Origin: an uncultured Alphaproteobacteria bacterium
GTDB taxonomy: Bacteria; Pseudomonadota; Alphaproteobacteria; HIMB59; GCA-002718135
Direction of reading: 5' to 3'
DNA length: 64,000 bases
Assembly: GCA_902515745.1 (NCBI GenBank)
Contig: CABXWB010000002.1
Span: forward strand, 70,515-134,514
Under the pieces are notes generated by a model. The model was not told where the DNA came from and made no database searches. It was given only the letters and a program-made list of their open reading frames with translations. The translations under genes and the position numbers were made by a program. Positions 40,022-57,823 of this stretch are shown one piece after another (position 1 is the stretch's first letter; every line of letters begins with the position of its first letter).

Positions 40022-40030
40022 CTAGTATAA

Positions 40031-41389: not shown

Positions 41390-41489
41390 CTTAAATTAAT
41401 CTTTAAATATCCATACCAAATAAACTAAATTAATCAGCAATTATATCGATAATCTATAAATAAGATTAATTATTTAACAATAAAATTTG

Positions 41490-42623: not shown

Positions 42624-42665
42624 AGTTTAGTAAATTATCTTATACATCTAATTAATTTAAATTGT

Positions 42666-43424: not shown

Positions 43425-44059
43425 GTAAAAAAAAATACTTACCAAATTTATCTGAGATTATTTTGTATACTTTTTTTTTATTATTTCTTGGACTATGCCT
43501 AATATTTTATTTTAATATTAGTAATAAATGTAGGAATACAAAAGATTTTGATTTTAGTTCAATAAATAAAAATAAGACCTACGCTGTATTAATGATAGAT
43601 TGTGGTGAAATTGTAATTGAAATAAATAATAATGTTTCTCCTAATAATTCTAAACGTTTTTTAAAATTAATTACAAATAAAGAATACGTAGATAGCTATT
43701 TTTATAAAGTTAAAGAAAATAAATTAGTTGAAGCAGGTGATTTAAAATATGGGAAAATTGAAAATTTAGATTATTTAAAAATTGGAACAGGAGGATCTGA
43801 GTATAATAATCTAAATTCAGAATTAAGTGAAAACTTTGATTTCACAAAAGGATCTGTGGGTATGGTAAGAAGAGGTAAATTTGATACCGAGAACTCACAA
43901 TTTTTTATTTTAATAGAAAATCAAAAATCATTTAATTTGCAATATACTCCTATTGGAAAAGTAATAAGTGATTTAGAAATTATAAAAACTATTAAAAGCG
44001 GTGACACAACGTTTGTTCTAAGACCAGATAAAATATTAGATAGCTATCGAATTAATTAA
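43421..44059 (+). CDS. Membrane-anchored cyclophilin-type peptidyl-prolyl isomerase
   Basis: This 212-residue protein has one N-terminal membrane segment (about 10-32) and a short cyclophilin domain. Segments that fit are MIDCGEIVIEINNNVSPNNSKRF, GTGGSEYNNLNSEL, GSVGMVRRGKFDTENSQFFI and YTPIGKVISDLEII. The active site is not canonical: the residues after SQFFI are well kept, but the first strand catalytic Arg/Phe pattern is weak. It would help fold proteins on the outer face of the inner membrane. It is translationally coupled to the metallopeptidase-like gene before it and ends with an eight-base overlap with the convergent DadA-like gene. Confidence 0.78.
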   Translation: MSKKKYLPNLSEIILYTFFLLFLGLCLIFYFNISNKCRNTKDFDFSSINKNKTYAVLMIDCGEIVIEINNNVSPNNSKRFLKLITNKEYVDSYFYKVKENKLVEAGDLKYGKIENLDYLKIGTGGSEYNNLNSELSENFDFTKGSVGMVRRGKFDTENSQFFILIENQKSFNLQYTPIGKVISDLEIIKTIKSGDTTFVLRPDKILDSYRIN

Positions 44060-45299
44060 AACGATTTGGGCTTAAAGTTTCAAAATCTTTATTTTTTTTA
44101 TCTTCAATTATGTTCAAAATAATTTCAGCAGAAATAGTTGCCAGGGTTAATCCTAAATGTTGATGGCCAAAATTGTAGATAATATTTTCATTATTTTTTG
44201 ACTTACCAATTACAGGTAATGAATCTGGTAAAGTTGGTCTATAACCTAACCAAACCTTATTTGGGTCATTATTTATATTGAAATTTGAAATTGTATTTTT
44301 ATGCATCCAATTGGTTCTTTTTGTATTTATACTCTTATCATTAATGCCAATTTCTACTGTTCCAGCAGCTCTTAAACCTTCCTCCATAGGGATATAATAC
44401 ATACCTTGGTTGACTACACTAATAGGTCTTGAAATAATATTTTTGCAATCATTATACATTAGATGATAACCCCTTTCTGTAATCATAGGAAAAGTTTCAC
44501 CTAACATATTTGCTAAGTTGTTAGAAAATGAACCAGTACAAATAATTAATTTATCAAATTTATAGCTATCATTTAAATTATCTTGAATTATAATTTTATT
44601 TTCTTCATTTTTAATTTTGATAATTTTCTTATAAAAAAATTTACCATTATTTTTTAAAAATTCTTCATATATTTTATTTACAAATCTTAGAGGATTGGTA
44701 GTAAATTTAGAACCTTTAAATAATGTTCCTCGATAAAAATTTTTATTTAAATTAGGTTCAATTTCTTTTATTTCTCTTGAAGAAATTTCTGTTAAATCAA
44801 TATTTTTAGATTTTCTCAAATCATTATCTTTCTTATCTCTTAAAAAATCTTTTTCAGTTTCATATAAATACAAAGTTTCATTATTATTAATCAAACTGCC
44901 AAAGTTAATTTCATTGAAAAGGTTATTATTTGCAATAGATGCCTTTTGTAAAATAATTGATAGCTGAGTAATAATATTATTAACTTTTTCTTTGGAACAA
45001 TTTTGTAAAAATTTAATTAACCATGGATAGATTGAAAATAAATTTTTCCATTGTATTGATAAAGGTGAACTATCTGAAAAAAGTAAGAATGGTAATTTCT
45101 TAAAAATATCTTCACTATTTATGGGTATGCAAGCATAATGTGCGAATGTTCCAGCATTTCCCATTGAAGTTTGGGTACCAGGAAGATTATCATCAAAAAG
45201 ACTTACAGAATAATTTTTTTTTTTTAAAGTGTAGGCTGTTAATGTTCCTATTACACCTGATCCAATCACTCCTATTGTTAGGGGCGTATTTTTATTCAT
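44052..45299 (-). CDS. FAD-dependent D-amino-acid dehydrogenase-like oxidoreductase
   Basis: This 415-residue DAO-family protein has the FAD motif IGVIGSGVIGTLTAYTL, a DadA-like SMGNAGTFAHYACIP segment and the C-terminal WLGYRPTLPDSLPVIG and NFGHQHLGLTLA. DadA-type enzymes oxidise amino acids or secondary amines such as opines. It is the last gene of the PotABCD-type importer operon (one-base overlap with the permease), so it should act on the imported amine. A role like PuuB, oxidising a gamma-glutamylated amine, is another possibility. Confidence 0.82.
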   Translation of the reverse strand: MNKNTPLTIGVIGSGVIGTLTAYTLKKKNYSVSLFDDNLPGTQTSMGNAGTFAHYACIPINSEDIFKKLPFLLFSDSSPLSIQWKNLFSIYPWLIKFLQNCSKEKVNNIITQLSIILQKASIANNNLFNEINFGSLINNNETLYLYETEKDFLRDKKDNDLRKSKNIDLTEISSREIKEIEPNLNKNFYRGTLFKGSKFTTNPLRFVNKIYEEFLKNNGKFFYKKIIKIKNEENKIIIQDNLNDSYKFDKLIICTGSFSNNLANMLGETFPMITERGYHLMYNDCKNIISRPISVVNQGMYYIPMEEGLRAAGTVEIGINDKSINTKRTNWMHKNTISNFNINNDPNKVWLGYRPTLPDSLPVIGKSKNNENIIYNFGHQHLGLTLATISAEIILNIIEDKKNKDFETLSPNRFN

Positions 45300-46156
45300 T
45301 ATCTCAGCTGTATACCTCTTAATCTTTCAGATCTTCTTCTAAGTATCTCCATCAAAACTAAAATTATAACTGAACCAGCAATTAAACATGTTGCAACAGA
45401 GAGTATTGTTGGGCTTAATTGCTCTCTCAGACCTGTCCACATTTGTATAGGTACAGTGGTTTGATCTGGACCAGCTAAAAATAATACAACAACAACTTCA
45501 TCAAAAGAAGTAACAAATGCAAATAATGCTCCTGACACTACACCTGGTGTTATTAATGGTAATATAACTTTAAAGAAAGTATTCATTGGTGAACTGCCTA
45601 AACTAGAAGCTGCTCTTGTCAAACTATGATCAAAACTACTTAAAGTAGCTGTAACTGTAATGACAACAAAAGGTGTGCCTAAAATAATATGAGCAATAAT
45701 TATACCGAGCATTGAGGAAGACAAACCTATTTTTGCCAAAAAGAAAAAAAGTGCTGAACCAGATATTATTAATGGTACAACCATTGGCGAAATTAATATG
45801 CTCATTATCAGTGCTTTGTAAGGCATAAACTTTGAGCTTAAACCTAAGGCAGCTAAAGTTCCTAGAGTTGTAGCTCCTATTGTAGCGAAAATACCTATTA
45901 CAAGACTATTTCTAAATGCTAATCCCCACGGATTTTTAGTGCCATAAACCATATCTTCATACCAACGTAGAGAAAATGCCTCAGGTTTTAAGGCTAACAT
46001 ATCATCTGAAAAATGAATGTATTGTTCAGCATTAAAAGATAAAGGAATTATAACAAAAAGTGGTGCTATCAAAAAAAAGAATACCAATCCGCATATGGTG
46101 AGATAAGTGTAGTGCCAAACTTTATATCTAAATTCTGTATGTTTATTTATAGCCAT
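45299..46156 (-). CDS. Polyamine-type ABC transporter permease (PotC/PotI-like)
   Basis: This 285-residue inner-membrane protein has six predicted membrane segments and the EAA loop (TRAASSLGSSPMNTFFKVILP) that couples to the ATPase. The C terminus reads SFDEVVVVLFLAGPDQTTVP, which is typical of PotC/PotI permeases for spermidine, putrescine and other cationic solutes. It pairs with the permease at 46159 (two-base gap). Its stop codon overlaps the start of the DadA-like gene. Confidence 0.9.
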   Translation of the reverse strand: MAINKHTEFRYKVWHYTYLTICGLVFFFLIAPLFVIIPLSFNAEQYIHFSDDMLALKPEAFSLRWYEDMVYGTKNPWGLAFRNSLVIGIFATIGATTLGTLAALGLSSKFMPYKALIMSILISPMVVPLIISGSALFFFLAKIGLSSSMLGIIIAHIILGTPFVVITVTATLSSFDHSLTRAASSLGSSPMNTFFKVILPLITPGVVSGALFAFVTSFDEVVVVLFLAGPDQTTVPIQMWTGLREQLSPTILSVATCLIAGSVIILVLMEILRRRSERLRGIQLR

Positions 46157-46158
46157 AT

Positions 46159-47400
46159 TTATCCCAGCTTAATATTATCTATTCCTAAAATTTTATTATA
46201 AAGCCAATAAAGAACTAAAACAGAAACTAAAAGCATAGCACCCATTGCAGATGCCATTGACCAATCTAATGATTCTTTCATATGATAAGCAATACGATTA
46301 CTAATAAGGGTTCCGCTAGCTCCTCCGACAAGAGCTGGTGTAATATAATAACCTATTGCAAGTATAAAAACTAATAATGAACCAGCACCTATTCCTGGGT
46401 ACGTCAAAGGAAAATATATTTTTCTGAATGAATGAAAGGGTGTTCCTCCAAGTGAACTTCCTGCTCGCATTAACGATGGTGGAATTGTCTTCATTACACT
46501 GTAAAGAGGTAATACCATGAACGGCAATAAAATTTGTGTCATTGCAACAAATGTACCTGTCATATTGTACATTAACTCGAGACGAGATTTATCTCCCACT
46601 ATTTTAAAATAAACCAGTATATCATTTAGCACTCCCTGCTGTTGTAATAAAATCATCCAACTTGAAGTTCTTACTAGTAATGATGTCCAAAACGGTAAAA
46701 GTACACAGATCAAAAGTAAATTTGAGTACCTAAGAGGTAAAGTAGATAATAAATGAGCAATTGGATAGGCCAATAACAAACAACAAATTGTTACACCTAA
46801 TGCTACATAAAATGTTCTATACCATAGAGTGCGATGTATTCTCCTTTTTTCAGGTTTCTGAATGATTTCTCCACTGTAATTTTTCTCAAGATCGACAGAT
46901 CCTAAATATTTATCAATAGTGTATTTTGGCATAGCTACTTTCATAGCTTGCCAATATTCGATATCTCCCCATTTTTTATTTAAATCAATAAATTGATCCT
47001 TATAATTTTCATCTTCAAAGTTTTTTAATTTTCTTCTAGTTTTGTTTATTAAACTTTTAAAACCATTTTTTGCATAATTTAGTCTTGTTGATACTTTACC
47101 TGAAAGTTTTTGTTTATGTGCTTCATTTAAATCAAGATAAAATGTTTTGTAAATATCTTCAGAAGGCATTTCGTTACCTTCCCAATTTGAAAGAGCTATT
47201 GCAGTTTGAGGTAATAGATCTGAAATTAATCTGTTATCAACACTTCTAGTTAATAAATTTAGTATAGGCCAAACATAAGCAACAATCAAAAATAAAAGTA
47301 AGGGTAATACTAATAAAAAAGCTCTGAATTTATTTTTTTGTTCAACTCTTTTTAGGCTTTTTTCAAGAGGTAAGCCTTCCGTTGTTAAAATTTTTGACAT
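46159..47400 (-). CDS. Polyamine-type ABC transporter permease (PotB/PotH-like) with a large first loop
   Basis: This 413-residue protein has six membrane segments with the EAA-like loop MRAGSSLGGTPFHSFRKIYFP. Compared with E. coli PotB (about 275-285 residues) it carries roughly 120 extra residues between membrane segments 1 and 2, charged and probably periplasmic. Similar long PotB forms are common in alphaproteobacteria. It forms the channel with the PotC-like protein. The hairpin at 47415-47440 lies just upstream, between it and the binding-protein gene. Confidence 0.9.
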   Translation of the reverse strand: MSKILTTEGLPLEKSLKRVEQKNKFRAFLLVLPLLLFLIVAYVWPILNLLTRSVDNRLISDLLPQTAIALSNWEGNEMPSEDIYKTFYLDLNEAHKQKLSGKVSTRLNYAKNGFKSLINKTRRKLKNFEDENYKDQFIDLNKKWGDIEYWQAMKVAMPKYTIDKYLGSVDLEKNYSGEIIQKPEKRRIHRTLWYRTFYVALGVTICCLLLAYPIAHLLSTLPLRYSNLLLICVLLPFWTSLLVRTSSWMILLQQQGVLNDILVYFKIVGDKSRLELMYNMTGTFVAMTQILLPFMVLPLYSVMKTIPPSLMRAGSSLGGTPFHSFRKIYFPLTYPGIGAGSLLVFILAIGYYITPALVGGASGTLISNRIAYHMKESLDWSMASAMGAMLLVSVLVLYWLYNKILGIDNIKLG

Positions 47401-47414
47401 TTAATTATAAAATC

Positions 47415-47440
47415 AAGGGCAAGTATAACAACTTGCCCTT
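47415..47440 (-). terminator. Hairpin between the PotD-like binding protein and the permease genes
   Basis: A perfect 10-bp stem (47415-47424 with 47431-47440, six-base loop) begins 15 bases after the binding-protein stop. On the minus strand it is followed by GATTTTAT, a short T-run. It should partly terminate transcription or protect the upstream message, raising binding-protein yield over the permeases. Confidence 0.7.
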
Positions 47441-47455
47441 AAAAAATATATGATA

Positions 47456-48565
47456 TTATAGTGAAGATTTGAAAGCTTCCCAAGCTTCTCCAAGCTCGAC
47501 TTCATTATCAGCCCAATACTCAGCATTCATTAAAATATAGTTCTTAGTATTGTCTGGAGCTGTAGGCATTTGCGGTAACATTTCTGTAGTACCATCTTTA
47601 TACCAAGGCTCATTAGCTGCAATAATATCTAATGAAGAAATTCTGAATGGTGCGTAAGCAATATACTTTGCACTTCCAGCTAGACCTTCAGTACTTGTGA
47701 AATAAGCCAATGCTTCCATTGCTTCTTCAGGGTTAGGACCGTTAGCAACTAGACCAAAATATTCATAATCTAATACCTGACCATCCCAAACTTGTTCAAT
47801 AGTAGTACCTTCGCCTACAATTGCATTAAAGAAACGTCCATTCCAACCAGTAGACATTACAACTTCACCTGAAGCTAAAAATTCTGGTGGCTGAGCACCA
47901 GCACTCCAGAAAATACATCCACCACTTGGGTCATTACATAGAGCTTCAAATTTTCCAATTGCTCTGTCTAAAGCACCAGTTTGGTTTTCTAAAACATCAT
48001 AAACAGCTCCAGCGCTAACACCATCAGCAACTAAAGCTATTTCTAAGTTTGACATAGCTCCAGTGTAAATTGATCTTTTGCCAGGGAATTTTTCAGTGTC
48101 AAAGAAATCACCAATTGTGCTTGGCATTGAATCAGCACCTGGAAATGCATTTGGATTGTAAGCATAGTTCCAAGAGTAAAGAATATTTCCTACCGCACAA
48201 TCACTTGGCATAGGAGCAAAGAAATCTTTACTTGCAGGTGTTCCATCAGGAGCTGCAGGGAAATCTTTGTCAAAATCGAATTCAACAAGTAATCCTTCAT
48301 CACATCCTATAATAGTATCTTTCGCAAATAAATCTACGATATCATAAGTGATATTTCCAGCGTCAGCTTGAGCTTTAACTTCACTTAGGCCTCCAGAATA
48401 ATCAATCCAATTTAGTTTGATACCCGTTTTAGCTGTAAAAGGATCACCATAACCTAATTTTTGACTTTCAGTATAAGCTCCACCCCAAGATACAACGTTC
48501 ACTTCCGCTGTTGCAAAAGGAGCAAAGAATACAGAAACCAATGCCGTTATAAGCATTTTTTTCAT
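47456..48565 (-). CDS. Polyamine-type periplasmic binding protein (PotD/PotF-like)
   Basis: This protein of about 369 residues begins MKKMLITALVSVFFAPFATAE, a clear signal peptide cleaved near residue 20. I choose the ATG at 48565 because GGAGG (48574-48570) stands before it; a longer frame from 48631 would bury the signal. WGGAYTES, YDIVDLFAKD, GNILYSWNY and VVMSTGWNGRF are PotD/PotF-family features. It captures a cationic amine for the PotBC permease. Codon use is less AT-biased than in its orphan paralog at 41490, suggesting high expression. The gene order ATPase, binding protein, permeases is that of polyamine operons. Confidence 0.9.
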   Translation of the reverse strand: MKKMLITALVSVFFAPFATAEVNVVSWGGAYTESQKLGYGDPFTAKTGIKLNWIDYSGGLSEVKAQADAGNITYDIVDLFAKDTIIGCDEGLLVEFDFDKDFPAAPDGTPASKDFFAPMPSDCAVGNILYSWNYAYNPNAFPGADSMPSTIGDFFDTEKFPGKRSIYTGAMSNLEIALVADGVSAGAVYDVLENQTGALDRAIGKFEALCNDPSGGCIFWSAGAQPPEFLASGEVVMSTGWNGRFFNAIVGEGTTIEQVWDGQVLDYEYFGLVANGPNPEEAMEALAYFTSTEGLAGSAKYIAYAPFRISSLDIIAANEPWYKDGTTEMLPQMPTAPDNTKNYILMNAEYWADNEVELGEAWEAFKSSL

Positions 48566-48669
48566 AAGTCCTCCATATTGTTTATTAATTAATAAATATT
48601 CTCCAAATAACATGATGAGGTCTCTATGCAAATTAAAAAAAGAAAAATATGATGAAAAAACCGTTATTT

Positions 48670-49779
48670 TCAGGAGTTTTTTTTATTACCTATAAAATCA
48701 AGAGCTCTACAATCCTGAGAATCCCATCCGAGAAGCACTTCTGATCCATTTTCAAAAGAAAATATATTTGAGGCATTTGGCACTTTTAATATGAAATCAT
48801 TTTGATCCAACAAGTTAACCCTAAGTCTGGTATGATCACCATGATAAATAACTTCTTCAATTTTTGCTTTAAATTTGTTTGGTATTTCAGCTGAAGGATT
48901 TATTAATATTCTCTCTGGTCTAAGAGACATACTAGTGGTATCACCAACATTATTTGAAATTACTGGATTTGCATGAATAATCTCATCATTATCAGTTTTT
49001 ACTTTGCATTGTTTTGAATCACTTTCAACAATTATCCCATTAATAATATTATTTTCACCAATAAATCTTGCTACAAAAGAATTTGTAGGCCTTTCATAAA
49101 GTTCATTAGGACTTGATAATTGCTGAATAAATCCATCATTAAATACTGCTATCCTATTAGACATTGTTAATGCTTCACCTTGATCATGAGTTACATATAC
49201 AACAGTAACACCTAGTGTTTCGTGTATATGTTTTAATTCATACTGCATACTTTCTCTTAGATTTTTATCAAGAGCACCTAACGGCTCATCCATTAAAACT
49301 AATTTTGGTTCAAAAACTAAAGCTCTAGCAACAGCTACTCTTTGCTGTTGACCTCCAGAAAGTTGACTTGGCATCCTATTTTCAAAACCTGTAAGTGAAA
49401 CCATACTAATTGCTTTATTAATTTTATTTTCAATTTCATCATTTGAAATTTTTCTAACTTTTAATGGAAATGCAAGATTTTCGTAGACTGTCATATGTGG
49501 GAATAATGCGTAGTTTTGAAAGACCATGCCGATTCCTCTTTTATGTGGGGTGATACTACTTATAGGTTTTTTATCTAAATATATTTCTCCACTTGTAGGA
49601 TTTTCAAAACCTGCCAACATCATTAAAGTAGTTGTTTTTCCTGAGCCTGAAGGTCCTAGTAAAGTTAAAAATTCACCTTCGGCAATATCTAGATTTAAAT
49701 TTTTAACAACAAGCTCTCTACCATCATAGCTCTTATCAATTTTTTCAAATCGGACAAATATATTTGAAGATTGTTTCAT
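48670..49779 (-). CDS. potA: Polyamine-type ABC transporter ATPase (PotA/PotG-like)
   Basis: This 369-residue protein has Walker A GPSGSGKTT (42-50), VFQNYALFPHMTVYEN, signature LSGGQQQRVAVARA, Walker B LVLMDEPLGALD and switch His in VTHDQGEALTMS. The C-terminal TOBE domain begins near SLRPERILI. These features fit PotA/PotG. It drives uptake through the PotBC-like permeases. No Shine-Dalgarno sequence is visible before the ATG; instead a nested inverted repeat lies 24-92 bases upstream and may control translation. Confidence 0.9.
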   Translation of the reverse strand: MKQSSNIFVRFEKIDKSYDGRELVVKNLNLDIAEGEFLTLLGPSGSGKTTTLMMLAGFENPTSGEIYLDKKPISSITPHKRGIGMVFQNYALFPHMTVYENLAFPLKVRKISNDEIENKINKAISMVSLTGFENRMPSQLSGGQQQRVAVARALVFEPKLVLMDEPLGALDKNLRESMQYELKHIHETLGVTVVYVTHDQGEALTMSNRIAVFNDGFIQQLSSPNELYERPTNSFVARFIGENNIINGIIVESDSKQCKVKTDNDEIIHANPVISNNVGDTTSMSLRPERILINPSAEIPNKFKAKIEEVIYHGDHTRLRVNLLDQNDFILKVPNASNIFSFENGSEVLLGWDSQDCRALDFIGNKKNS

Positions 49780-49802
49780 AGAATATTATATAAATTTGAA
49801 TT

Positions 49803-49871
49803 AAAGGTGGTTAAAGCAATAGTCAAAAACTTATTTTATAAATTGTATAATTTTGACGTATTACCACCTTT
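49803..49871 (-). promoter_or_regulatory. Nested inverted repeats before potA: candidate structured leader
   Basis: Outer arms of 9 bases (49803-49811 AAAGGTGGT, 49863-49871 ACCACCTTT) enclose arms of 7 bases (49822-49828 GTCAAAA, 49851-49857 TTTTGAC), which enclose a 5-bp stem (49836-49840 with 49846-49850). The element ends 24 bases before the potA start on the minus strand. I do not recognise it as a known riboswitch class. It may be a structured leader RNA or paired operator sites. Confidence 0.5.
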
Positions 49872-49930
49872 TACAAAGCTATTTTTTAATAATTTTATAA
49901 AATTTTAAATAATAAGGCTTATAATTAATT

Positions 49931-51085
49931 TTATATTAATTGTTGTTCTACTAACTCAGACCAATAAGATGAGCCAATTACTAACAATTCATCATTAAAA
50001 TCATAATTGTCAGCATGTAAAGGTCTTGAATGTTGTTCTGATATACCATTACCCATTAAAATAAAACATCCTGGTTTTTCACTTGTCATCATTGAAAAAT
50101 CTTCAGAAAAAAGACGTGGTTCAATATCTCCGTTACATTTATCATTGCCAAGTAATGAAATCGCAGCTTTGGTTGCTGCATCAGCTTGAATTTTTGAATT
50201 GAAAGTTACTGGACAGACTGTTTCATATTTAACACTTCCATTAACTCCGTGTGCATTACAGACTCCTTCAACAATTTGTAATATCTTAGAGGCAATTTTC
50301 TCATTTGTTTCTTTTGATAAAGCTCTAGCATCACCCTTCATTATAACATTACCTGGCAAAACATTTTTTTTACCATCAGTTATAAATTCAGTGATAGAAA
50401 CTATACCATTGTCTGCTGGATTTAATTTCCTAGAGACTATCGATTGAAGTGCTACAGCTATTTGGGAACCAACAGTTATTGCATCAACGCCCATATGAGG
50501 TAATGCAGCGTGCCCACCTTTGGCCTTTATTTCAATTTCAAATAAATTTTCACTTGCTGTAATAGGTCCTTTTCTTGTACCAAATGTTCCAATCTCCATA
50601 TTAGGAATATTGTGCATAGCGTAAACTTCATCAATTTTAAATTTATCAAACAAACCTTCATCTATCATTGTTCTTGCGCCAAAAGTATTTTCTTCATCAG
50701 GTTGAAAAATAAAATATACTGTTCCATTAAAGTTACCTTTTTCAGATAAATATTTTGCTGCACCTAATAACATTGTAGTGTGACCGTCATGTCCACATGC
50801 ATGCATTCTGTTATCAAACTTTGACTTATAACTAAAATTATTAGTTTCATGTATAGGAAGAGCATCCATGTCAGCTCTTATACCTATTGATTTTGAGCTA
50901 TTTCCTTTTTTTAAAATTCCAACTACTCCAGTTCTGGCAATACCAGAATGAACTTCTATGCCAAACTCTTTTAGAAGTGTTGACACTTTTACTGCAGCAT
51001 ACTCTTCTTCAAAACCTAATTGTGGGTGCATATGAAGATCATGACGCCATTCTACTAATTGGTTATGTAATGACTGAGTTTTCAT
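49931..51085 (-). CDS. M20-family amidohydrolase (hippurate hydrolase / N-acyl-amino-acid deacylase type)
   Basis: This 384-residue metallopeptidase-fold enzyme has GIRADMDALPI and HACGHDGHTTML (Cys97, His99, His102), the metal-binding core of the M20D amidohydrolases, then PDEENTFGA with the catalytic Glu and a dimerisation domain. It removes an acyl group from an amino acid. M20 proteins are known in some ectoine-degradation clusters as N-acetyl-diaminobutyrate deacetylases, and the upstream EutABC genes make that a possibility. It follows the PLP enzyme by three bases, at the end of the AGAT-eutABC run. Confidence 0.87.
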   Translation of the reverse strand: MKTQSLHNQLVEWRHDLHMHPQLGFEEEYAAVKVSTLLKEFGIEVHSGIARTGVVGILKKGNSSKSIGIRADMDALPIHETNNFSYKSKFDNRMHACGHDGHTTMLLGAAKYLSEKGNFNGTVYFIFQPDEENTFGARTMIDEGLFDKFKIDEVYAMHNIPNMEIGTFGTRKGPITASENLFEIEIKAKGGHAALPHMGVDAITVGSQIAVALQSIVSRKLNPADNGIVSITEFITDGKKNVLPGNVIMKGDARALSKETNEKIASKILQIVEGVCNAHGVNGSVKYETVCPVTFNSKIQADAATKAAISLLGNDKCNGDIEPRLFSEDFSMMTSEKPGCFILMGNGISEQHSRPLHADNYDFNDELLVIGSSYWSELVEQQLI

Positions 51086-51088
51086 AGC

Positions 51089-52531
51089 TTACATATTATT
51101 AAATTCTTTAATCTTATTATCTAGAGAAAGGATATAACTATAATGCGAATTCCAAAATTTTTGATCTTTTCTTTTTTCAAATTCTTCAAGACTTACACCT
51201 TGTTGCTCTACCCAAGTAAAGTAACCTAAATCAAATATTCTTTTCTTGTCCATGTAAGAAAGTTCAAGCATATTATCAGTGGATATTCCTAATAAATATT
51301 GTCCAAATAATTCAGCACAAACTATTTCATCATAATTATTTTTAAAATCAGCAATGGTCTTGTTTAACTCTGACATATATAAATCTGCACCATCGGTAGC
51401 AACCGTTATAATTGCGTCATCACTATTTAAATCCATATATTTAGCTAGTTTTATTGATGCCAATATATTTGCTATTGCTGAAAAGCCAAATTCAGGAAGA
51501 CGAGAAACAAAATCAGGGTCAAAATTTTTTTTTTCAATTAAAAATTTTTTTCCTATTTCAGTATTAAAAATCATATTTAGATTACTGGTAGCTTGATCAG
51601 AAATATCGACAACAAAGTCTGTATTCATTACATTATGAATAAGGGGAACATGTTTATCGCCAATTCCTTGTATATTATGTTCACCATAACCTCCATGAAG
51701 CAATGTTGGGCATTCCAAAGCTTCAACAACTGCAATCTTAATCTGTAATTTATCTTTAAGATAATCTCCTGCTGCTAGAGTACCACTTGATCCTGAAGCA
51801 CTTACGTAAAATCTAGGAACTAAATTACTATTACCTTTAACTTTAAGAAATGATTTTTCAAACGATGGACCAGTTACAGAACGATGAATACCGTAATTAT
51901 AATACTCATCAAATTGATTTATTATATCATTTTTATTATCTTTTTTTAATTCATTGCAAGCATCATAGATTTCTTTAACATTACTTTCTGTACCTTTTGT
52001 TTTTATGATATTTTTTTTATCTTCAACCCAATTATTCAGCCACTCAAATCTCTCATTACTCATCCCTTCAGGAAGTATTGCAATACTATTAAGTCCCATT
52101 ATACGAGATATTGCCACTCCGCCCCTGCAATAATTTCCAGTTGAAGGCCAGACTGCTTTATGTTCTTCATAATCAAAAGTACCATTCAGTATTCTTGGAA
52201 GTAAACAACCATAAGCTGCCAAAACTTTATGAGCTGTTATTAAGGGAAAATATCTTCCCATATTTACAATAATCTTTGCCTTAACGCCTGTAAATTCTGT
52301 TGGAAGAACAATATATTCAGGCTCATTTCCAAAACCTGATTGATCTCTTTTATTAAACCAATGAACTCTAAAGAGGTTAAGCGGATTGATGTCATTATTA
52401 TTTATATTTTTTAGAGAATTTTTTATGTCATCATTAATAATTTGAGGATCTTGAAGTTCACTTATACTTGGCAAAACAACTCCTTTTGATTTGAAGTAAT
52501 CAGACGTTTTTTTTATTATTGTTTGACTCAT
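51089..52531 (-). CDS. Fold-type II PLP-dependent enzyme of unassigned function
   Basis: This 480-residue protein resembles the tryptophan-synthase-beta/cysteine-synthase fold. Lys102 in ITAHKVLAAYG is the probable PLP-binding lysine, STGNYCRGGVA (130-140) fits the phosphate and asparagine loop, and YVSASGSSGTLAAGDYL and GFSAIANIL are further family segments. It is longer than cysteine synthase (about 310-330 residues) and has an N-terminal extension of about 75 residues. It would catalyse a beta- or gamma-elimination or replacement on an amino acid. It sits three bases from EutC and three bases from the M20 gene; I do not recognise its reaction. Confidence 0.72.
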   Translation of the reverse strand: MSQTIIKKTSDYFKSKGVVLPSISELQDPQIINDDIKNSLKNINNNDINPLNLFRVHWFNKRDQSGFGNEPEYIVLPTEFTGVKAKIIVNMGRYFPLITAHKVLAAYGCLLPRILNGTFDYEEHKAVWPSTGNYCRGGVAISRIMGLNSIAILPEGMSNERFEWLNNWVEDKKNIIKTKGTESNVKEIYDACNELKKDNKNDIINQFDEYYNYGIHRSVTGPSFEKSFLKVKGNSNLVPRFYVSASGSSGTLAAGDYLKDKLQIKIAVVEALECPTLLHGGYGEHNIQGIGDKHVPLIHNVMNTDFVVDISDQATSNLNMIFNTEIGKKFLIEKKNFDPDFVSRLPEFGFSAIANILASIKLAKYMDLNSDDAIITVATDGADLYMSELNKTIADFKNNYDEIVCAELFGQYLLGISTDNMLELSYMDKKRIFDLGYFTWVEQQGVSLEEFEKRKDQKFWNSHYSYILSLDNKIKEFNNM

Positions 52532-52534
52532 AAA

Positions 52535-53509
52535 TTAAATTTTGATGCCTAAATTATTTGTTTTACAAAGATTATAAGCAAATCGTGCTATTGCAGTATC
52601 TTGTACACCAGTTCCTGTCAAATCACATATCGTTATATCTTTTTTATTTTTTCTTCCTAAGCTTGGATTGTTAATAATATCGCCAAGTTCATTAAATTTT
52701 TCTTTGGAAGGAATTATATTTTGTTTTATAGCATGATGTAATTCTCCCAAAGCACTTGTCTGTAATTGATTGTCAGGTACATATTGATCGCAATTTTTTA
52801 ACATATGAGGATCTAATTCATTTTTTTGTTCAGCATCTGATCCCATTGCTGTTATGTGTGTTCCTTTTTTTATCCAATCAAATTCCAAAAGAGGTTTTTT
52901 ACTAGGAGTCGTTGTAACGATTATTTCTGATAAGCTTGCCAATTCCTTGCAAGAAGAAGCTATATGCAATTCTAAATCTAAATTTTTGAAACTTTCTATA
53001 AATTGGTTTGCTTTTGTCTCATCTCTTGTCCAGACTATTATTTTATTTATTTTTCTTACTAACATTATTGCTTGAAGTTGTAATTTGGCTTGAATTCCAG
53101 CACCAATAATACCAACAGAATTAGCACTTTGATTTGATAAATATTTTGTAGCTATTGCTCCTGCTATAGCTGTTCTAGTATCTGTAAGATAACCTTCATC
53201 TAATAAAACAGATTTTACAACTCCAGTCTTTGAATCTAATAAAACCATGAGTCCATTACTAGATGGCAAACCCAGTTTTGGATTATCGAAAAAACCTGAG
53301 GCGATTTTTATTGCAAAACTATCAAGACCCTCAACGTATGCAGCTTTAACATCTGATTCACCATGATATTTTTCAATATCTATTCTCATTATAGGTGGCA
53401 TCATTACCAAACCTTTTGATAAACTTTTAAATGCTTCCTCTATTATTGGTATGAGATTTTTATTCAAATCTACATGTTGAATAATATCATTTTTATTAAG
53501 GATGAGCAT
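52535..53509 (-). CDS. eutC: Ornithine cyclodeaminase family protein, EutC-like
   Basis: This 324-residue member of the ornithine cyclodeaminase/mu-crystallin family has the Rossmann motif GIIGAGIQAKLQLQA, DEGYLTDTRTAIAGAIATKYL and the C-terminal DLTGTGVQDTAIA that is typical of EutC from ectoine-utilisation clusters. True ornithine cyclodeaminases convert ornithine to proline and ammonia with bound NAD. It overlaps the EutB-like gene by 14 bases. With an amidinotransferase (an ornithine-releasing enzyme) at the head of the operon, either an ornithine-to-proline step or a hydroxyectoine step could be its job. Confidence 0.82.
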   Translation of the reverse strand: MLILNKNDIIQHVDLNKNLIPIIEEAFKSLSKGLVMMPPIMRIDIEKYHGESDVKAAYVEGLDSFAIKIASGFFDNPKLGLPSSNGLMVLLDSKTGVVKSVLLDEGYLTDTRTAIAGAIATKYLSNQSANSVGIIGAGIQAKLQLQAIMLVRKINKIIVWTRDETKANQFIESFKNLDLELHIASSCKELASLSEIIVTTTPSKKPLLEFDWIKKGTHITAMGSDAEQKNELDPHMLKNCDQYVPDNQLQTSALGELHHAIKQNIIPSKEKFNELGDIINNPSLGRKNKKDITICDLTGTGVQDTAIARFAYNLCKTNNLGIKI

Positions 53510-54458
53510 GACTTAAAACTTTGTTAAACAATTCCGAGTCAATATTTCCACCACAAATTAAACAGATTATATTCTTTCCTAAGTGTGATGTTAATTTTTC
53601 TTTAACAACCATTACACTTGTTGCTGCAGCGCCTTCAGATACAATTTTATGTTCTAAAAAGTTTATTCTAATTCCCTCAGCTATTTTTTCTTCACTTACT
53701 AAAACAAAGTCATCAACGTATTGTTGTACAATATTAAATGTAAATTTATTATCTAATCCAATACTACCTCCTAAACAATCAGCTAAAGTTTCAGTTTCCT
53801 CTACATCAACAGGTCTACCTTTTTTTAAACTTTCATACATTGAAGGGCCTCTTTCCATAGATACAGCAATAATTTTTGTGTCAGGTTTTTGAAGTTTTAT
53901 AGCTTGTGCTATTCCAGATATAAGACCGCCACCAGATGTTGGTATAATTACTGTATCAACTTCAGGAAATTCAGTAAGCATTTCAAGTCCAACTGTACCC
54001 TGACCTATAATAATGTCTTCATCATCAAAGGGATGAATTAATGGGATATTTTTTTCTTTCGCCATTTGTTTAGCATACAAATCAGCTTCATCACTATTCT
54101 TTCCAATAATTTCTACTTTTGCTCCTAATTTTTCAATAGCCTCTTTTCTATATTCTGGAACCATTGAAGACATGTATATTGTTGATTGAATGCCCAATAC
54201 CTTTGAAGCATAAGCAACTCCTTTGCCATGATTGCCTGTAGAAACTGCGATGACTCCTTTGCTTTTGTCATCTTGACTTAAAGAAAGAAGCTTATTAACC
54301 GCACCTCTTAACTTAAATGAACCAGTGATTTGAAAATTTTCTAACTTTAGTTTAACTTTATTACTTTTTGATAAGAAATTAGAATTAATTAATGGTGTAT
54401 AGTTAACATAAGGTAAAATTTTCTTATGTGCATCTTGTATTTGTTTAAGTGTAATCAA
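53496..54458 (-). CDS. eutB: Threonine dehydratase-like PLP enzyme, EutB-like
   Basis: This 320-residue fold-II PLP enzyme has Lys49 in TGSFKLRGAVN as Schiff-base lysine, VSTGNHGKGVAYA, PTSGGGLISGIA and the C-terminal CGGNID. Length and motifs match EutB (hydroxyectoine utilisation dehydratase) and the catabolic threonine/serine dehydratases; there is no regulatory ACT domain. It lies between the EutA-like and EutC-like genes in the order eutA-eutB-eutC. Its reaction on hydroxyectoine-type substrates is known from that pathway; here the substrate is uncertain. Confidence 0.85.
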   Translation of the reverse strand: MITLKQIQDAHKKILPYVNYTPLINSNFLSKSNKVKLKLENFQITGSFKLRGAVNKLLSLSQDDKSKGVIAVSTGNHGKGVAYASKVLGIQSTIYMSSMVPEYRKEAIEKLGAKVEIIGKNSDEADLYAKQMAKEKNIPLIHPFDDEDIIIGQGTVGLEMLTEFPEVDTVIIPTSGGGLISGIAQAIKLQKPDTKIIAVSMERGPSMYESLKKGRPVDVEETETLADCLGGSIGLDNKFTFNIVQQYVDDFVLVSEEKIAEGIRINFLEHKIVSEGAAATSVMVVKEKLTSHLGKNIICLICGGNIDSELFNKVLSHAHP

Positions 54459-54470
54459 TTTAAACCCTAT

Positions 54471-55226
54471 TTAATTTAATTTAAATAGGTTACCAAAACC
54501 ATCAATTTTTTTATTAATATTAGATAATCTTAATGAATCCCAAATAATAGCTTGATTACTTGAAATAATATCTGTGCCTAATTTTGACTCTAATTTTTCG
54601 ATAATATCAATTACTTTTAATGCAGTACAAGAAACAAAAATACTATCAACATCTGTTAAATCAATTGAGGAAATTGTTTGCATTAAACTATCATGAGTAA
54701 CTTTAGCAATTTCCGAGTCATAATTTAAATTAAACGAACTAAATGATTTAATTTCAAATCCACTATCAATTAAATATTCGTAAACTTTAACATTAACATC
54801 CTTCGGATAAGGGGTAAGAACAGCAATTTTTTTATGGTTAAGCAATTTAAGTGCTTTAACAGCTGCTGTAATTGGGGTCGTAATTAAAGCATCAGGTTTA
54901 GCTTTGAAAATTTCAGATCTTATTCTTTTTTCACCAATTTCAATAGTACCTGAAGTACATCCATACGCTACAACTTGTATTTTTTCATTTGGTAATATTT
55001 GTTTTGTTGTTTCTGTAAGATGATCAGCCATCCTCATATAATTTTCATGAGTTAGAGGATTTAAAAAAGGTATTCTATTAAAAAATAGATCAACTGGTAA
55101 ATTATGGCAAATTTTTCTAAAATCCTGTTCAATAGTAAAATCAGTTGATAAAGTAATTATACCAATTCTAGAAAAGTTTGTATCATGTAAATTGGCTTTT
55201 ACATTATTTTGATTAAAACTATCCAT
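54471..55226 (-). CDS. eutA: Asp/Glu racemase-superfamily protein, EutA/maleate isomerase-like
   Basis: This 251-residue protein has the two active-site cysteines of the aspartate/glutamate racemase superfamily: Cys90 in AYGCTSGT and Cys200 in FVSCTALK. RIGIITLSTDFTIEQD and the TTPITAAV segment match the maleate isomerase/EutA branch. EutA takes part with EutB and EutC in turning hydroxyectoine to ectoine. It starts within the stop codon of the amidinotransferase gene (one-base overlap) and precedes eutB by 12 bases, so it belongs to the same transcript. Confidence 0.82.
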   Translation of the reverse strand: MDSFNQNNVKANLHDTNFSRIGIITLSTDFTIEQDFRKICHNLPVDLFFNRIPFLNPLTHENYMRMADHLTETTKQILPNEKIQVVAYGCTSGTIEIGEKRIRSEIFKAKPDALITTPITAAVKALKLLNHKKIAVLTPYPKDVNVKVYEYLIDSGFEIKSFSSFNLNYDSEIAKVTHDSLMQTISSIDLTDVDSIFVSCTALKVIDIIEKLESKLGTDIISSNQAIIWDSLRLSNINKKIDGFGNLFKLN

Positions 55227-56329
55227 TATTGATTTGGAAAATAATCCTCACATCCACCTTCTCTATAAACATCAGTAGTGGCACAATGTAAACTACCACC
55301 AAACGCATAAACTTCTCTAAAAGGAACTGGAATAACCTCCAATCCAAAACTTTCCATTTGTCTAATCATTTTTTCTTCTGTTGCCTCGACGCATATAGTT
55401 TTAGGATCAATTATCAAAACGTTCATTGATAACCAGATTGATGAATAACACATAGGTGGTGGACTATTATGAATAGAAGGTGCTGCCTCATGAATTTCCC
55501 ATTTATTATCATCGAAAATTTTTCTTTGCTCTGAGGATATTTTTCTATTTGGATTAATAATTATAACTCCAGGTTTAATAGGAGTAAAACATGCATCAAT
55601 GTGAGTTGGAATTAAATCACCTGGTAAATTAATTTGATGAATGCGATGATCTGGATAATGTCTTCTTAACCAATCTAAACCACTTAAATTTGATGTAAAA
55701 TTGTTATGATAAAATAGATCTTTTCCAAAGCGTAAAATTTCTGCTGCATCAAAAAGTGGTTCTTTTTCTGTCAATATCATGTCTCTATTTTCGATTTTTT
55801 TATATCGTTCTTCTTCCGTTATGCCTTCAGGAAGATAATTAGACTTATAAGATTGATTTGTTAATCTTGGTTTAGGTGCCGACTCCCATCTCATATTTTT
55901 ATCTTCTGAATAATATTTTTCAAGTAGTGGTCTATAAGCAAGGTACTCAAACCATCTACATCTATAAGACATGGGCGCCTCTAGCATTTCATTTCCTACA
56001 GTGAGAATAACATCTCTAGGAGGCATACAACCAAACATACCATCATTAGACCAATCAGGTGTCTCGATACTCTGAGAAAAGTCAATAGGTGTTGGTCTAT
56101 CAACTTTTATATTTAGAGAATTTAATATTTTAACAAAGTTTTCTAATTGTATATTTGCTTTATCAATTGACTCCTTTGAACGTGGTCCGTAAGATCCTCC
56201 CATACCACTATCTTTACTAATTTTTGGTTCAAGCGCCGGTTCCATTGGAGGTATGTTGGCATTTTCAACTGCTCCAACTATAACATGTTTTAATGAATCC
56301 CATTCATTCCAAGAATTAACTATTGTCAT
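55226..56329 (-). CDS. Amidinotransferase (arginine:glycine amidinotransferase-like)
   Basis: This 367-residue enzyme resembles glycine/inosamine amidinotransferases: an N-terminal NSWNEWDSLKHVIVG, HIDACFTPIKPG with Asp/His of the catalytic site, and the nucleophilic Cys349 in GGSLHCATTDVYR near the C terminus. It would move the amidino group of arginine to an amine, releasing ornithine. It is the first gene of the minus-strand array that continues with EutA, EutB, EutC, a PLP enzyme and an M20 hydrolase, and shares a 42-base divergent region with gabD. In animals AGAT makes creatine precursor; the bacterial acceptor here is unknown. Confidence 0.88.
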   Translation of the reverse strand: MTIVNSWNEWDSLKHVIVGAVENANIPPMEPALEPKISKDSGMGGSYGPRSKESIDKANIQLENFVKILNSLNIKVDRPTPIDFSQSIETPDWSNDGMFGCMPPRDVILTVGNEMLEAPMSYRCRWFEYLAYRPLLEKYYSEDKNMRWESAPKPRLTNQSYKSNYLPEGITEEERYKKIENRDMILTEKEPLFDAAEILRFGKDLFYHNNFTSNLSGLDWLRRHYPDHRIHQINLPGDLIPTHIDACFTPIKPGVIIINPNRKISSEQRKIFDDNKWEIHEAAPSIHNSPPPMCYSSIWLSMNVLIIDPKTICVEATEEKMIRQMESFGLEVIPVPFREVYAFGGSLHCATTDVYREGGCEDYFPNQ

Positions 56330-56371
56330 TATATTTTCCTTAATTTAAACTATGCATTATAATTAAAATAT

Positions 56372-57823
56372 ATGGAATTAAATAACAAATCACTCTTTAA
56401 ACAAAAATGTTTTATAAATGGGGAATGGGTTGACAGTTCTTCAGGTCAAACTCTTGAGGTAAATAATCCAGCCTCTCTTGAAATTATTGGCAACGTCCCA
56501 AAATGCTCAGTTTCAGAAACTAAAAAAGCTGTAGATGATGCTAATACTGCTTTCCAAACTTGGAAAGAAACTACTGCGAAAGATAGATCAGTTATTCTTA
56601 AAAAATGGGGTGAGCTAATTACAGAAAATGCAGATGATTTAGCTAAAATCATGACTATTGAACAGGGTAAACCTCTAGCTGAATCAAAGGGTGAAATACT
56701 AATGGGTGCTTCATATATTGAATTCTATGCTGAAGAAGCAAAAAGAGTGTATGGTGATATAGTTCCTGATCCAAGACCTGGAAAAAGAATTGTAATAATT
56801 AAACAACCTGTCGGTGTTGTTGGAGCAATAACTCCATGGAATTTTCCAAACTCAATGATCACAAGAAAATGCGCAGCTGCTCTAGCAGTTGGTTGTACTA
56901 CTGTTGTTAAACCAGCTAGCCAAACACCCTATTCAGCACTAGCCGTTGCAGTACTTGCTAAAGAAGCGGGTTTTCCAGATGGTGTATTTAATGTAATCAC
57001 TGGATCGGCAAGTGAGATTGGTAAAGAGCTAACAAGTAATCCAATTGTAAGAAAAATTTCTTTTACAGGATCTACGGAAGTTGGAAAAATACTTTTAGAG
57101 CAAAGTGCCTCAACAGTAAAAAAAGTCTCTATGGAACTTGGTGGTCATGCACCCTTTATTGTTTTCGATGATGCAGATATGGATGAAGCTGTTGCAGGCG
57201 CACTTCAAAGTAAGTTTAGAAATAGTGGTCAAACATGTATTTGTTCAAATAGAATATTTGTCCATGAAAATGTTTATAATGAATTCCTAGAAAAATTTAC
57301 GAATGAAGTCAGTAAAATAACAGTGGGAAATGGACTTGAAGACGGAATTGTATCTGGCCCTTTAATTGATCAATCCTCTTTAGAAAAAGTAATTGATCAT
57401 GTACAAGACGCAGTGAATACAGGAGCAAAAATAGCAATTGGTGGAGATGTACATTCGCTTGGTGGTAATTTCTATCAACCAACTGTTCTCTCAAATGTAT
57501 CTTCAAAGGCAAAAATTACTTTTGAAGAAACATTCGGACCCGTTGCTCCTCTTTACAAATTTGCTAGTGATGATGAGGTGATTAAAATGGCTAATGATAC
57601 ACCATATGGATTAGCTTCATATTTTTATTCAAGAGACATAGGAAGAATATGGAGAGTTGCTGAAGCACTTGAATATGGAATTGTATCTATCAACAATGGA
57701 CTACCAACAATTGCGGAAGTTCCTTTTGGAGGTGTAAAAGAATCAGGAATGGGTAGAGAAGGTTCTCGTTATGGCCTTGATGACTATTTAACTATAAAAT
57801 ATATTTCAATGGGTGGTATTTAA
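56372..57823 (+). CDS. gabD: Succinate-semialdehyde dehydrogenase
   Basis: This 483-residue ALDH has ITPWNFPNSMITRK, KPASQTP, the base Glu255 in SMELGGHAPFI and Cys289 in SGQTCICSNR, the GabD pattern (the second Cys two residues on is a known feature). It oxidises succinate semialdehyde to succinate, the last step from GABA, putrescine and arginine-derived 4-aminobutyrate. It is divergent from the amidinotransferase array and so could drain a four-carbon product of that pathway. TATAAT at 56358-56363 lies only nine bases before the ATG, so the message may be almost leaderless. Confidence 0.9.
   Translation: MELNNKSLFKQKCFINGEWVDSSSGQTLEVNNPASLEIIGNVPKCSVSETKKAVDDANTAFQTWKETTAKDRSVILKKWGELITENADDLAKIMTIEQGKPLAESKGEILMGASYIEFYAEEAKRVYGDIVPDPRPGKRIVIIKQPVGVVGAITPWNFPNSMITRKCAAALAVGCTTVVKPASQTPYSALAVAVLAKEAGFPDGVFNVITGSASEIGKELTSNPIVRKISFTGSTEVGKILLEQSASTVKKVSMELGGHAPFIVFDDADMDEAVAGALQSKFRNSGQTCICSNRIFVHENVYNEFLEKFTNEVSKITVGNGLEDGIVSGPLIDQSSLEKVIDHVQDAVNTGAKIAIGGDVHSLGGNFYQPTVLSNVSSKAKITFEETFGPVAPLYKFASDDEVIKMANDTPYGLASYFYSRDIGRIWRVAEALEYGIVSINNGLPTIAEVPFGGVKESGMGREGSRYGLDDYLTIKYISMGGI

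What the first reader, a model, noticed from the sequence alone, without database searches (positions are those of the whole stretch)
44052..57823. Amidinotransferase-EutABC-PLP-M20-PotABCD-DadA array: candidate undescribed pathway for a cationic nitrogen compound
Seen: 11 minus-strand genes, most overlapping or spaced by under 15 bases, join an arginine:amine amidinotransferase to EutA, EutB and EutC-like enzymes, an unassigned fold-II PLP enzyme, an M20 deacylase, a polyamine-type importer and a DadA-like oxidase; gabD is divergent. Known: EutABC convert hydroxyectoine to ectoine, but the ectoine hydrolase (DoeA/EutD) and its usual partners are absent here, and AGAT is not part of that pathway. 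Inference: the importer brings in an amine or guanidino compound, AGAT moves an amidino group and releases ornithine, EutC (an ornithine cyclodeaminase relative) or EutA/EutB process the product, and GabD drains a C4 semialdehyde.
Basis: partly seen in the sequence, partly recalled or inferred. Interest (0 to 1): 0.72.

Follow-up and report, generated by a model that had tools for sequence, protein, structure and literature searches.

The report
Amidinotransferase joined to hydroxyectoine-type enzymes
A small marine bacterium and its relatives carry a conserved six-gene operon that joins an arginine-using amidino-group transfer enzyme to enzymes known from the breakdown of the salt-protectant hydroxyectoine, which suggests an undescribed route for a basic nitrogen compound whose identity is not known.

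Summary
The genes are real and named correctly, but the eleven-gene array is two units. The conserved one is AGAT-EutA-EutB-EutC-PLP480-M20 (junctions -14 to +12 bases) with gabD divergent. PotABCD-DadA starts after a 151-base gap; in congeners a 50-55% paralogous Pot set lies 12-25 kb beyond M20.

AGAT is in 51 of 61 genus genomes, many of them incomplete. An ectoine-hydrolase (EutD/DoeA) homologue over 300 bits is in 25 of 61; 32 of the 51 AGAT-bearing genomes, the window's own included, lack one. The six genes stay under strong purifying selection (dN/dS 0.05-0.14) between the window and G442, whose islands lack M24 and EutD. So the operon does not depend on ectoine hydrolase.

AGAT keeps its catalytic and arginine-site residues, but its acceptor flap is [DE]L[IT]PT in 29 of 29 eut-linked loci against DPYPI or DPFPT in 57 of 60 others.

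Ectoine-type importer genes sit inside the operon in a sister lineage. Best reading: a derivative of hydroxyectoine-type chemistry in which an amidino carbon is exchanged with ornithine/arginine. Substrate, direction and each step are inferred. New variant of a known kind.

The parts
55226..56329 (-). AGAT-family amidinotransferase, first gene of the operon
   Evidence: human AGAT 262 bits; catalytic D194, H243, C349 and donor-site D106, D245, R262, S297 kept; acceptor flap 238-242 DLIPT
54471..55226 (-). EutA-like racemase/epimerase; two invariant cysteines C90 and C200 (their catalytic role is recalled)
   Evidence: TIGR02990 216 bits (cut-off 318); alignment A3 of 12 sequences
53496..54458 (-). 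EutB-like PLP dehydratase
   Evidence: PRK07476 378 bits (cut-off 413)
52535..53509 (-). EutC-like imine reductase/cyclodeaminase
   Evidence: PRK08291 453 bits (cut-off 408), TIGR02992 411 (cut-off 472)
51089..52531 (-). PLP480, uncharacterised fold-II PLP enzyme with the fold of the OASS/CBS beta-elimination/replacement group
49931..51085 (-). M20 amidohydrolase/deacylase, last gene of the conserved six-gene operon
   Evidence: TIGR01891 316 bits over cut-off; DoeB2 model 311 (cut-off 550)
56372..57823 (+). divergent succinate-semialdehyde dehydrogenase-type gene, conserved beside AGAT
   Evidence: TIGR01780 721 bits; 29 of 29 close loci
48670..49779 (-). PotA-type ATPase, start of a second unit after a 151-base gap
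47456..48631 (-). polyamine-type solute-binding protein (TTG start; an ATG lies 22 codons further in)
46159..47400 (-). PotB-type permease; 98-99% identical copies in G008 and G442, 50-55% paralogues in 44 other genus genomes, none at E 1e-60 in 14 of 61
45299..46156 (-). PotC-type permease
44052..45299 (-). DadA-like FAD oxidase of the second unit
38645..42623 (-). neighbouring GlnA-like ligase, aldehyde dehydrogenase and second solute-binding protein; in G027 and G022 the GlnA-like gene lies one gene away from the PotABCD-DadA paralogues

Best explanation
The functional unit is the six-gene operon AGAT-EutA-EutB-EutC-PLP480-M20 with the divergent semialdehyde dehydrogenase, a lineage-specific derivative of hydroxyectoine-type catabolism. 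Proposed working: (1) M20 removes an acyl group from an imported short basic amino acid; (2) AGAT moves an amidino group between arginine/ornithine and the terminal amine of that compound, most likely stripping it onto ornithine so that the carbon and two nitrogens are recovered as arginine; (3) EutA sets the stereochemistry of a beta-hydroxyl, EutB removes it as water, EutC reduces the resulting imine, giving a 2,4-diaminobutyrate-class amino acid; (4) PLP480 carries out a beta-elimination or replacement; (5) the dehydrogenase oxidises a C4 semialdehyde. In relatives the M24 hydrolase without metal ligands, or EutD, would open or cut the amidine carbon by water instead of transfer, which would explain why they can be missing. 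Shown: gene content, conservation, selection, retained catalytic residues, distinct acceptor flap. Inferred: the substrate, the direction and every single step.
For: EutA, EutB and EutC behind AGAT in 26 of 29 close loci; AGAT in 51 of 61 genus genomes. dN/dS 0.047-0.139 for the six genes between the window and G442, whose islands both lack M24 and EutD. Eut-linked AGATs form one clade, 28 of 28 rows, support 1.0, with flap [DE]L[IT]PT in 29 of 29 against DPYPI/DPFPT in 57 of 60 others and catalytic residues kept; in AmtA and CyrA the flap residues bear on activity or substrate choice (PMC4887976, passages). EhuB 290 and EhuC 236 bits, both over cut-off, in L032 between EutC and PLP480, with EhuB/EhuC at 95-100% identity in L033, L035 and L036. 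EutC branches with EutCs of doeA clusters. AGAT relatives lie beside creatinase in Pelagibacter-type loci and L145, 5 kb from an M24 37% identical to the island's in L144, and beside PotABCD and an agmatinase-type gene (my reading) in L059. The island M24 of congeners matches none of the five metal ligands of prolidase 1pv9 (ligand positions recalled); creatinase and DoeA are likewise metal-free (recalled).
Against: EutA and EutB score under their curated cut-offs and EutB falls outside the EutBs of doeA clusters, so the eut label may not carry the substrate. PLP480 is not tied to AGAT elsewhere (2 of 25 genomes, chosen among the 51 non-genus loci) and its 50% relatives sit in mixed contexts. 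M24 or Pot neighbours are seen in only a few of about a dozen AGAT lineages. In 6 of 61 genomes EutD occurs without AGAT. L027 keeps AGAT without the rest; G459 and L028 have broken EutA, EutB or M20 frames. No substrate, expression or assay data exist here.
Confidence: 0.42

Rival explanations
1. An ordinary hydroxyectoine degradation operon: EutABC convert hydroxyectoine or its ring-opened form, M20 replaces the deacetylase EutE, gabD is Ssd, and AGAT and PLP480 are side genes; genomes without eutD take up ring-opened intermediates or use another hydrolase.
For: EutD homologue on the island in G027, G020, G022, G016 and G004 and above 300 bits in 25 of 61 genomes; EhuBC over cut-off inside the operon in a sister lineage; in G465 AGAT-EutA is followed directly by another EutD homologue, and in both G465 and G004 Ehu-like importer genes lie next to AGAT-EutA, though their EhuB is only 25-27% like that of L032; the divergent gabD is 49-50% identical to the Ssd-type genes of doeA clusters L150/L151.
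Against: No EutD over 300 bits in 32 of 51 AGAT-bearing genus genomes, cleanly missing with both flanks intact in G028, G029, G019 and G458, and selection persists without it; DoeD/Atf query at most 38% identity in 12 genomes; AGAT and PLP480 are the constant partners.
Confidence: 0.3
2. A creatine/guanidinoacetate pathway: M24 is a creatinase, SoxBDAG oxidises sarcosine, AGAT moves amidino from guanidinoacetate to ornithine giving glycine and arginine; EutABC belong to something else.
For: True creatinase (544 bits) beside AGAT and a threonine-aldolase-type gene in L143 and similar loci; SoxB follows M24 and the hydroxyproline-dehydratase-like gene in congeners; a survey proposes creatine use by one AEGEAN169 clade (PMC11366302, passages; the word creatinase does not occur in its main text).
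Against: The island M24 matches creatinase at only 56 bits, below Xaa-Pro dipeptidase at 70, and the window has neither M24 nor Sox genes between M20 and PotA; the acceptor flap differs from that of the creatinase-linked AGATs.
Confidence: 0.12
3. Biosynthesis: AGAT amidinates a diamino acid with arginine to make a guanidino compatible solute or signal, EutABC/PLP480 building the carbon skeleton (SbnA/SbnB-like logic).
For: PLP480 has the OASS fold and EutC is of the OCD family, like the SbnA/SbnB pair (pairing recalled).
Against: M20 hydrolase, importers and SSADH around it point to breakdown; no ligase, NRPS or exporter among the six genes.
Confidence: 0.08

Closest known systems
ehuABCD-eutABC-doeAB hydroxyectoine catabolic cluster (Sinorhizobium meliloti pSymB, locus L158; Ruegeria pomeroyi)
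   Same: EutA-EutB-EutC in the same order; a semialdehyde dehydrogenase nearby; in some relatives also Ehu importer genes and a EutD homologue
   Different: no eutD, no eutE-type deacetylase and no aminotransferase in the window cluster; AGAT first gene; PLP480 and M20 instead; EutA/EutB below curated cut-offs; EutABC's own role in hydroxyectoine use was a proposal not tested biochemically in 2018 (PMC5924519, passages)
L-arginine:glycine amidinotransferase family (human AGAT, SxtG, HsvA, StrB, CyrA, AmtA)
   Same: nearly full-length homology, catalytic triad and donor-site residues kept
   Different: acceptor flap DLIPT, unlike human DPNPM, AmtA DMHPM and CyrA DIFPS (flaps from PMC4887976, passages) and unlike the DPYPI of most 60%-identical alphaproteobacterial relatives
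Creatinase / ectoine hydrolase branch of the M24 fold
   Same: the island M24 of congeners has lost the metal ligands of prolidase
   Different: 56 bits to creatinase and 33 to DoeA only; the own genome holds only a 24% identical M24 elsewhere, while the other 13 of 14 genomes searched have a close copy
BhcB/BhcD of the beta-hydroxyaspartate cycle (logic of the pair recalled)
   Same: dehydratase plus imine reductase pair that removes a beta-hydroxyl from an amino acid
   Different: scores 211 and 186 bits, far under cut-offs 550 and 500

Membership tests
Hydroxyectoine catabolic cluster | EutABC present as a set | tested here: met
   EutC over the PRK08291 cut-off but under TIGR02992, EutA and EutB below theirs
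Hydroxyectoine catabolic cluster | ectoine hydrolase EutD/DoeA in the genome | tested here: not met
   own assembly best 48.6 bits against cut-off 613, assembly 89.7% complete; homologues above 300 bits in 25 of 61 genus genomes, 0 of 61 over the cut-off
Hydroxyectoine catabolic cluster | DABA aminotransferase Atf/DoeD | tested here: inconclusive
   none in the cluster; own genome best 35% identity to the B. multivorans protein; class III aminotransferases, generic by identity, in 12 of 12 genomes, so the activity is not excluded
Hydroxyectoine catabolic cluster | ectoine importer (Ehu, Ueh or Tea) in the cluster | tested here: inconclusive
   none in the window cluster; EhuB and EhuC over cut-off in sister locus L032
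Hydroxyectoine catabolic cluster | growth on or induction by hydroxyectoine | not testable with these tools
   -
AGAT amidinotransferase family | Asp-His-Cys catalytic residues and arginine-site residues | tested here: met
   window D194, H243, C349, D106, D245, R262, S296/S297; the full set is kept in 26 of 29 eut-linked loci (two have Thr for the second Ser, L038 is partial) and 58 of 60 others
AGAT amidinotransferase family | glycine as acceptor | not testable with these tools
   flap sequence differs from those of human AGAT, AmtA and CyrA
Creatinase (for the congener M24) | sequence match to solved creatinase better than to peptidases | tested here: not met
   56 bits against 70 for Xaa-Pro dipeptidase
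OASS/CBS-type fold-II PLP enzymes (PLP480) | fold | tested here: met
OASS/CBS-type fold-II PLP enzymes (PLP480) | O-acetylserine sulfhydrylase activity | not testable with these tools
   cysK model 74 bits against cut-off 351

The most novel reading that the evidence does not exclude
A new catabolic pathway in a marine alphaproteobacterial lineage for a beta-hydroxylated guanidino or cyclic-guanidine amino acid (a guanidino counterpart of hydroxyectoine): AGAT, with a remodelled acceptor flap, transfers the amidino carbon to ornithine so that it is kept as arginine, and EutABC plus an uncharacterised OASS-like enzyme dismantle the rest.
Probability: 0.25. Interest if true: 0.75.

Novelty: new variant of a known kind. 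Interest (0 to 1): 0.5.

Why it matters
If the operon works as proposed, it adds amidino-group exchange to amino-acid osmolyte catabolism in streamlined ocean bacteria, gives EutABC a substrate beyond hydroxyectoine, and warns that eutABC alone should not be read as ectoine use in surveys.

Tried and rejected
Considered one eleven-gene operon: rejected because of the 151-base gap and because in G027, G020, G022, G016, G004, G028, G029, G019 and G458 a paralogous Pot set lies elsewhere on the island. Considered that the absence of EutD is an assembly gap: rejected for the genus as a whole, since four other genomes show the place with intact flanks and no EutD; for the own genome it cannot be wholly excluded away from the island. 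Considered a general AGAT-PLP480 link: 2 of 25 genomes; two MarineAlpha5_Bin9 proteins (P0080, P0240) list the same longest contig length, but that contig could not be read. Pfam ADI family in the own genome: no match. The AGAT model was too poor to use (pLDDT 60). Promoter-like hits in 41000-58000 equal the shuffles (104 against 100, sd 10), so the promoter-like site in the M20-PotA gap counts for nothing. Literature, by search listings (titles and starts of abstracts): 'amidinotransferase' with 'SAR11' 0 papers; amidinotransferase/ectoine/creatinase, two of three terms, 15 papers, none on such a pathway; searches listed none on this operon either (one search showed 12 of 556, 10 of 27, 10 of 27). 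The library lacks most subscription papers. AEGEAN-169 papers were seen by passages only (PMC11366302, PMC10308909: 0 occurrences of ectoine in the main text of either); also by passages, PMC10030771 reports an ectoine permease in most SAR11 subclades and PMC3686209 lists a SAR11 creatinase cluster. That the window genome is AEGEAN-169/HIMB59-like is a guess from the 1.4 Mb single-contig genome G037 in its order. Names given from my own reading of sequences, without a family search: agmatinase-, EamA-, M19-, threonine-aldolase-, SoxD/A/G- and ArgE-type genes.
Full report
What is there. The amidinotransferase has no NCBIfam match but aligns over nearly its whole length with human AGAT (262 bits), SxtG, HsvA and StrB. 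Seven of ten junctions overlap or are 12 bases or less; M20-PotA is 151, PotA-SBP 38, SBP-PotB 55.

Two units, not one. In 61 genus genomes the window's PotB has near-identical copies only in G008 and G442; 44 others have a 50-55% paralogue and 14 none at E 1e-60. In G027 the order is gabD | AGAT-EutA-EutB-EutC-PLP480-M20-M24-trans-3-hydroxyproline dehydratase-like gene-SoxBDAG-EutD homologue-two unassigned genes-M19-type gene-EamA-type gene-PotA-SBP-PotB-PotC-DadA-ALDH-GlnA-ALDH2-ADH (SoxB and the dehydratase, the M19, EamA and SoxDAG names from my reading). In G027, G004, G028, G029, G019 and G020 the Pot set begins about 12 to 25 kb beyond M20. Of the 29 close loci, 18 read on past M20: 16 go to M24 and 2 (L015, L023) to PotA. 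In the window, G442 and G008 M20 is followed directly by PotA-SBP-PotB-PotC-DadA, then a cyclophilin, a peptidase, a second SBP and GlnA. The importer and DadA are therefore better read with the GlnA/ALDH module than with AGAT.

Conservation. AGAT is in 51 of 61 genus genomes and 0 of 24 other genomes of the order. Of 29 close loci, 26 carry EutA, EutB and EutC behind AGAT, 25 also PLP480, all 29 the divergent gabD; L013, and L035 for PLP480, end at contig edges, L038 has a partial AGAT near an edge, L027 lacks the rest. In a class-wide sample AGAT occurs in 11 of 385 genomes (own, one congener, six at 59-62%, three at 36-39%), PLP480 in 12 of 385 (two of the genus), EutB at E 1e-75 or better in 23 of 385 (two of the genus).

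Is it hydroxyectoine? For: in L032 a BisC-type gene and an importer lie between EutC and PLP480, and its EhuB (290 bits, cut-off 191) and EhuC (236, cut-off 197) pass their ectoine-specific models; L033, L035 and L036 hold copies 95-100% identical in the same place. A homologue of ectoine hydrolase (367 bits to solved DoeA) is on the island in G027, G020, G022, G016 and G004. G465 has another one directly behind AGAT-EutA with Ehu-like genes, and G004 has Ehu-like genes, a BisC-type gene and two further M24s between EutA and EutB; the EhuB of these two is only 25-27% like that of L032. Against: TIGR02993 passes its cut-off in 0 of 61 genomes; matches above 300 bits occur in 25 of 61, one of them partial. 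Crossing: both genes 19, AGAT only 32, EutD only 6, neither 4; many genomes are incomplete (53-92%). In G028, G029, G019 and G458 the island is intact except for EutD. Between the window and G442 dN/dS is 0.094 (AGAT), 0.099 (EutA), 0.068 (EutB), 0.139 (EutC), 0.076 (PLP480), 0.047 (M20); against L011 0.07-0.20, EutC the highest. So the six genes are kept without EutD and M24. A DoeD/Atf query found class III aminotransferases at 35% in the own genome and at most 38% in twelve genomes, which does not exclude the activity. EutABC's role in hydroxyectoine use was itself described as not biochemically evaluated (PMC5924519, passages), and later work is cited as proposing that it acts on ring-opened hydroxy compounds (PMC13188858, passages).

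What the amidinotransferase adds. The residues matching human D170, D254, H303, D305, R322, S355 and C407 are kept (my reading; counted; the human triad from PMC3684758, passages, the other human positions recalled). The 300-flap, which is DPNPM in human AGAT, DMHPM in AmtA and DIFPS in CyrA and bears on activity or substrate choice (PMC4887976, passages; there one flap swap in AmtA changed nothing and another abolished transfer), is DLIPT in 21, ELIPT in 7 and DLTPT in 1 of 29 eut-linked loci, against DPYPI 51, DPFPT 6 and three others in 60 further loci (one genome, L044/L140, is counted twice there). The eut-linked proteins form one clade (28 of 28 rows after dropping L038, support 1.0, stem 0.37). 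So the donor side looks unchanged and the acceptor side was remodelled when, or after, AGAT joined this operon.

Relatives of AGAT. Elsewhere the 60%-identical AGATs sit in other settings: EamA-type gene, creatinase and threonine-aldolase-type gene in Pelagibacter-type loci (creatinase in 7 of 51 loci L040-L090; also L141 and L143; 544 bits to solved creatinase), a 57% creatinase in L145, an M24 37% identical to the island's 5 kb away in L144, and an agmatinase-type gene plus PotABCD divergent from AGAT in L059. Several lineages show none of these. The island M24 has C, G, R, D and G opposite the five metal ligands of prolidase 1pv9 (my reading; ligands recalled). This makes amidine or guanidine carbon chemistry a reasonable common theme, not a proof.

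PLP480. Its family is large (8000 scored, the cap) and often labelled cysteine synthase. The model (pLDDT 87.7) has an OASS/CBS fold. At about 50% identity it lies beside agmatinase-type genes in L111, L114 and L117, but also beside CoA-transferase, TRAP or betaine-type transporter genes, and is in only 2 of 25 genomes with the sister AGAT. Its role here is the weakest link.

Reading. I favour breakdown of a short, beta-hydroxylated basic amino acid carrying an amidine or guanidine carbon, with AGAT exchanging that carbon with ornithine and EutABC removing the hydroxyl; plain hydroxyectoine use with AGAT as a side gene comes next. Every chemical step is inference. The finding is a conserved, selected, lineage-specific gene combination without a described pathway in the searches made, hence a new variant of a known kind rather than a new kind.

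Noticed in passing
L143:6895-11200, L141, L083, L085, L086, L088, L090: In Pelagibacter-type genomes an EamA-type transporter, a true creatinase, AGAT and often a threonine-aldolase-type gene form a cluster; together they could supply glycine and arginine from creatine and guanidinoacetate in organisms known to need glycine (need recalled).
   Followed up: partly
L164:7607-13730 (G465) and L131:995-17254 (G004): Between EutA and EutB these lineages carry Ehu-like importer genes, an ArgE-type gene and further M24 genes (in G465 a EutD homologue directly behind EutA, with EutB-M20 on another contig; in G004 also a BisC-type gene).
   Followed up: partly
L137:6829-15398 (Photobacterium sp. TY1-4 plasmid): Diaminopropionate ammonia-lyase, EutA-like racemase, M20, TRAP importer and Xaa-Pro peptidase-type gene in one stretch: perhaps a shorter-chain analogue of ectoine catabolism.
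   Followed up: no
L138:5788-17529 (Rhizobium anhuiense plasmid): EutA-like gene annotated arylmalonate decarboxylase near ATP-grasp, ectoine-synthase and aminotransferase genes, looking biosynthetic.
   Followed up: no
window 47442-47413 (minus strand): Twelve-pair hairpin with T tail between the solute-binding protein and PotB, a usual place for an attenuator that keeps binding-protein expression high.
   Followed up: no
L165:1573-3143 (G459); L028:3472-8760: EutB split and EutA shortened in G459, EutA and M20 in pieces in L028, while AGAT is intact; decay or assembly error.
   Followed up: no
window 55226-56329: Close database copies of the amidinotransferase are named serine/threonine protein kinase, a wrong label that spreads.
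   Followed up: no
window 42666-44059: Peptidase_Mx1 and cyclophilin genes sit between the Pot-DadA unit and the second SBP/GlnA module in the window, G442 and G008, where G027 has an aldehyde dehydrogenase instead.
   Followed up: no
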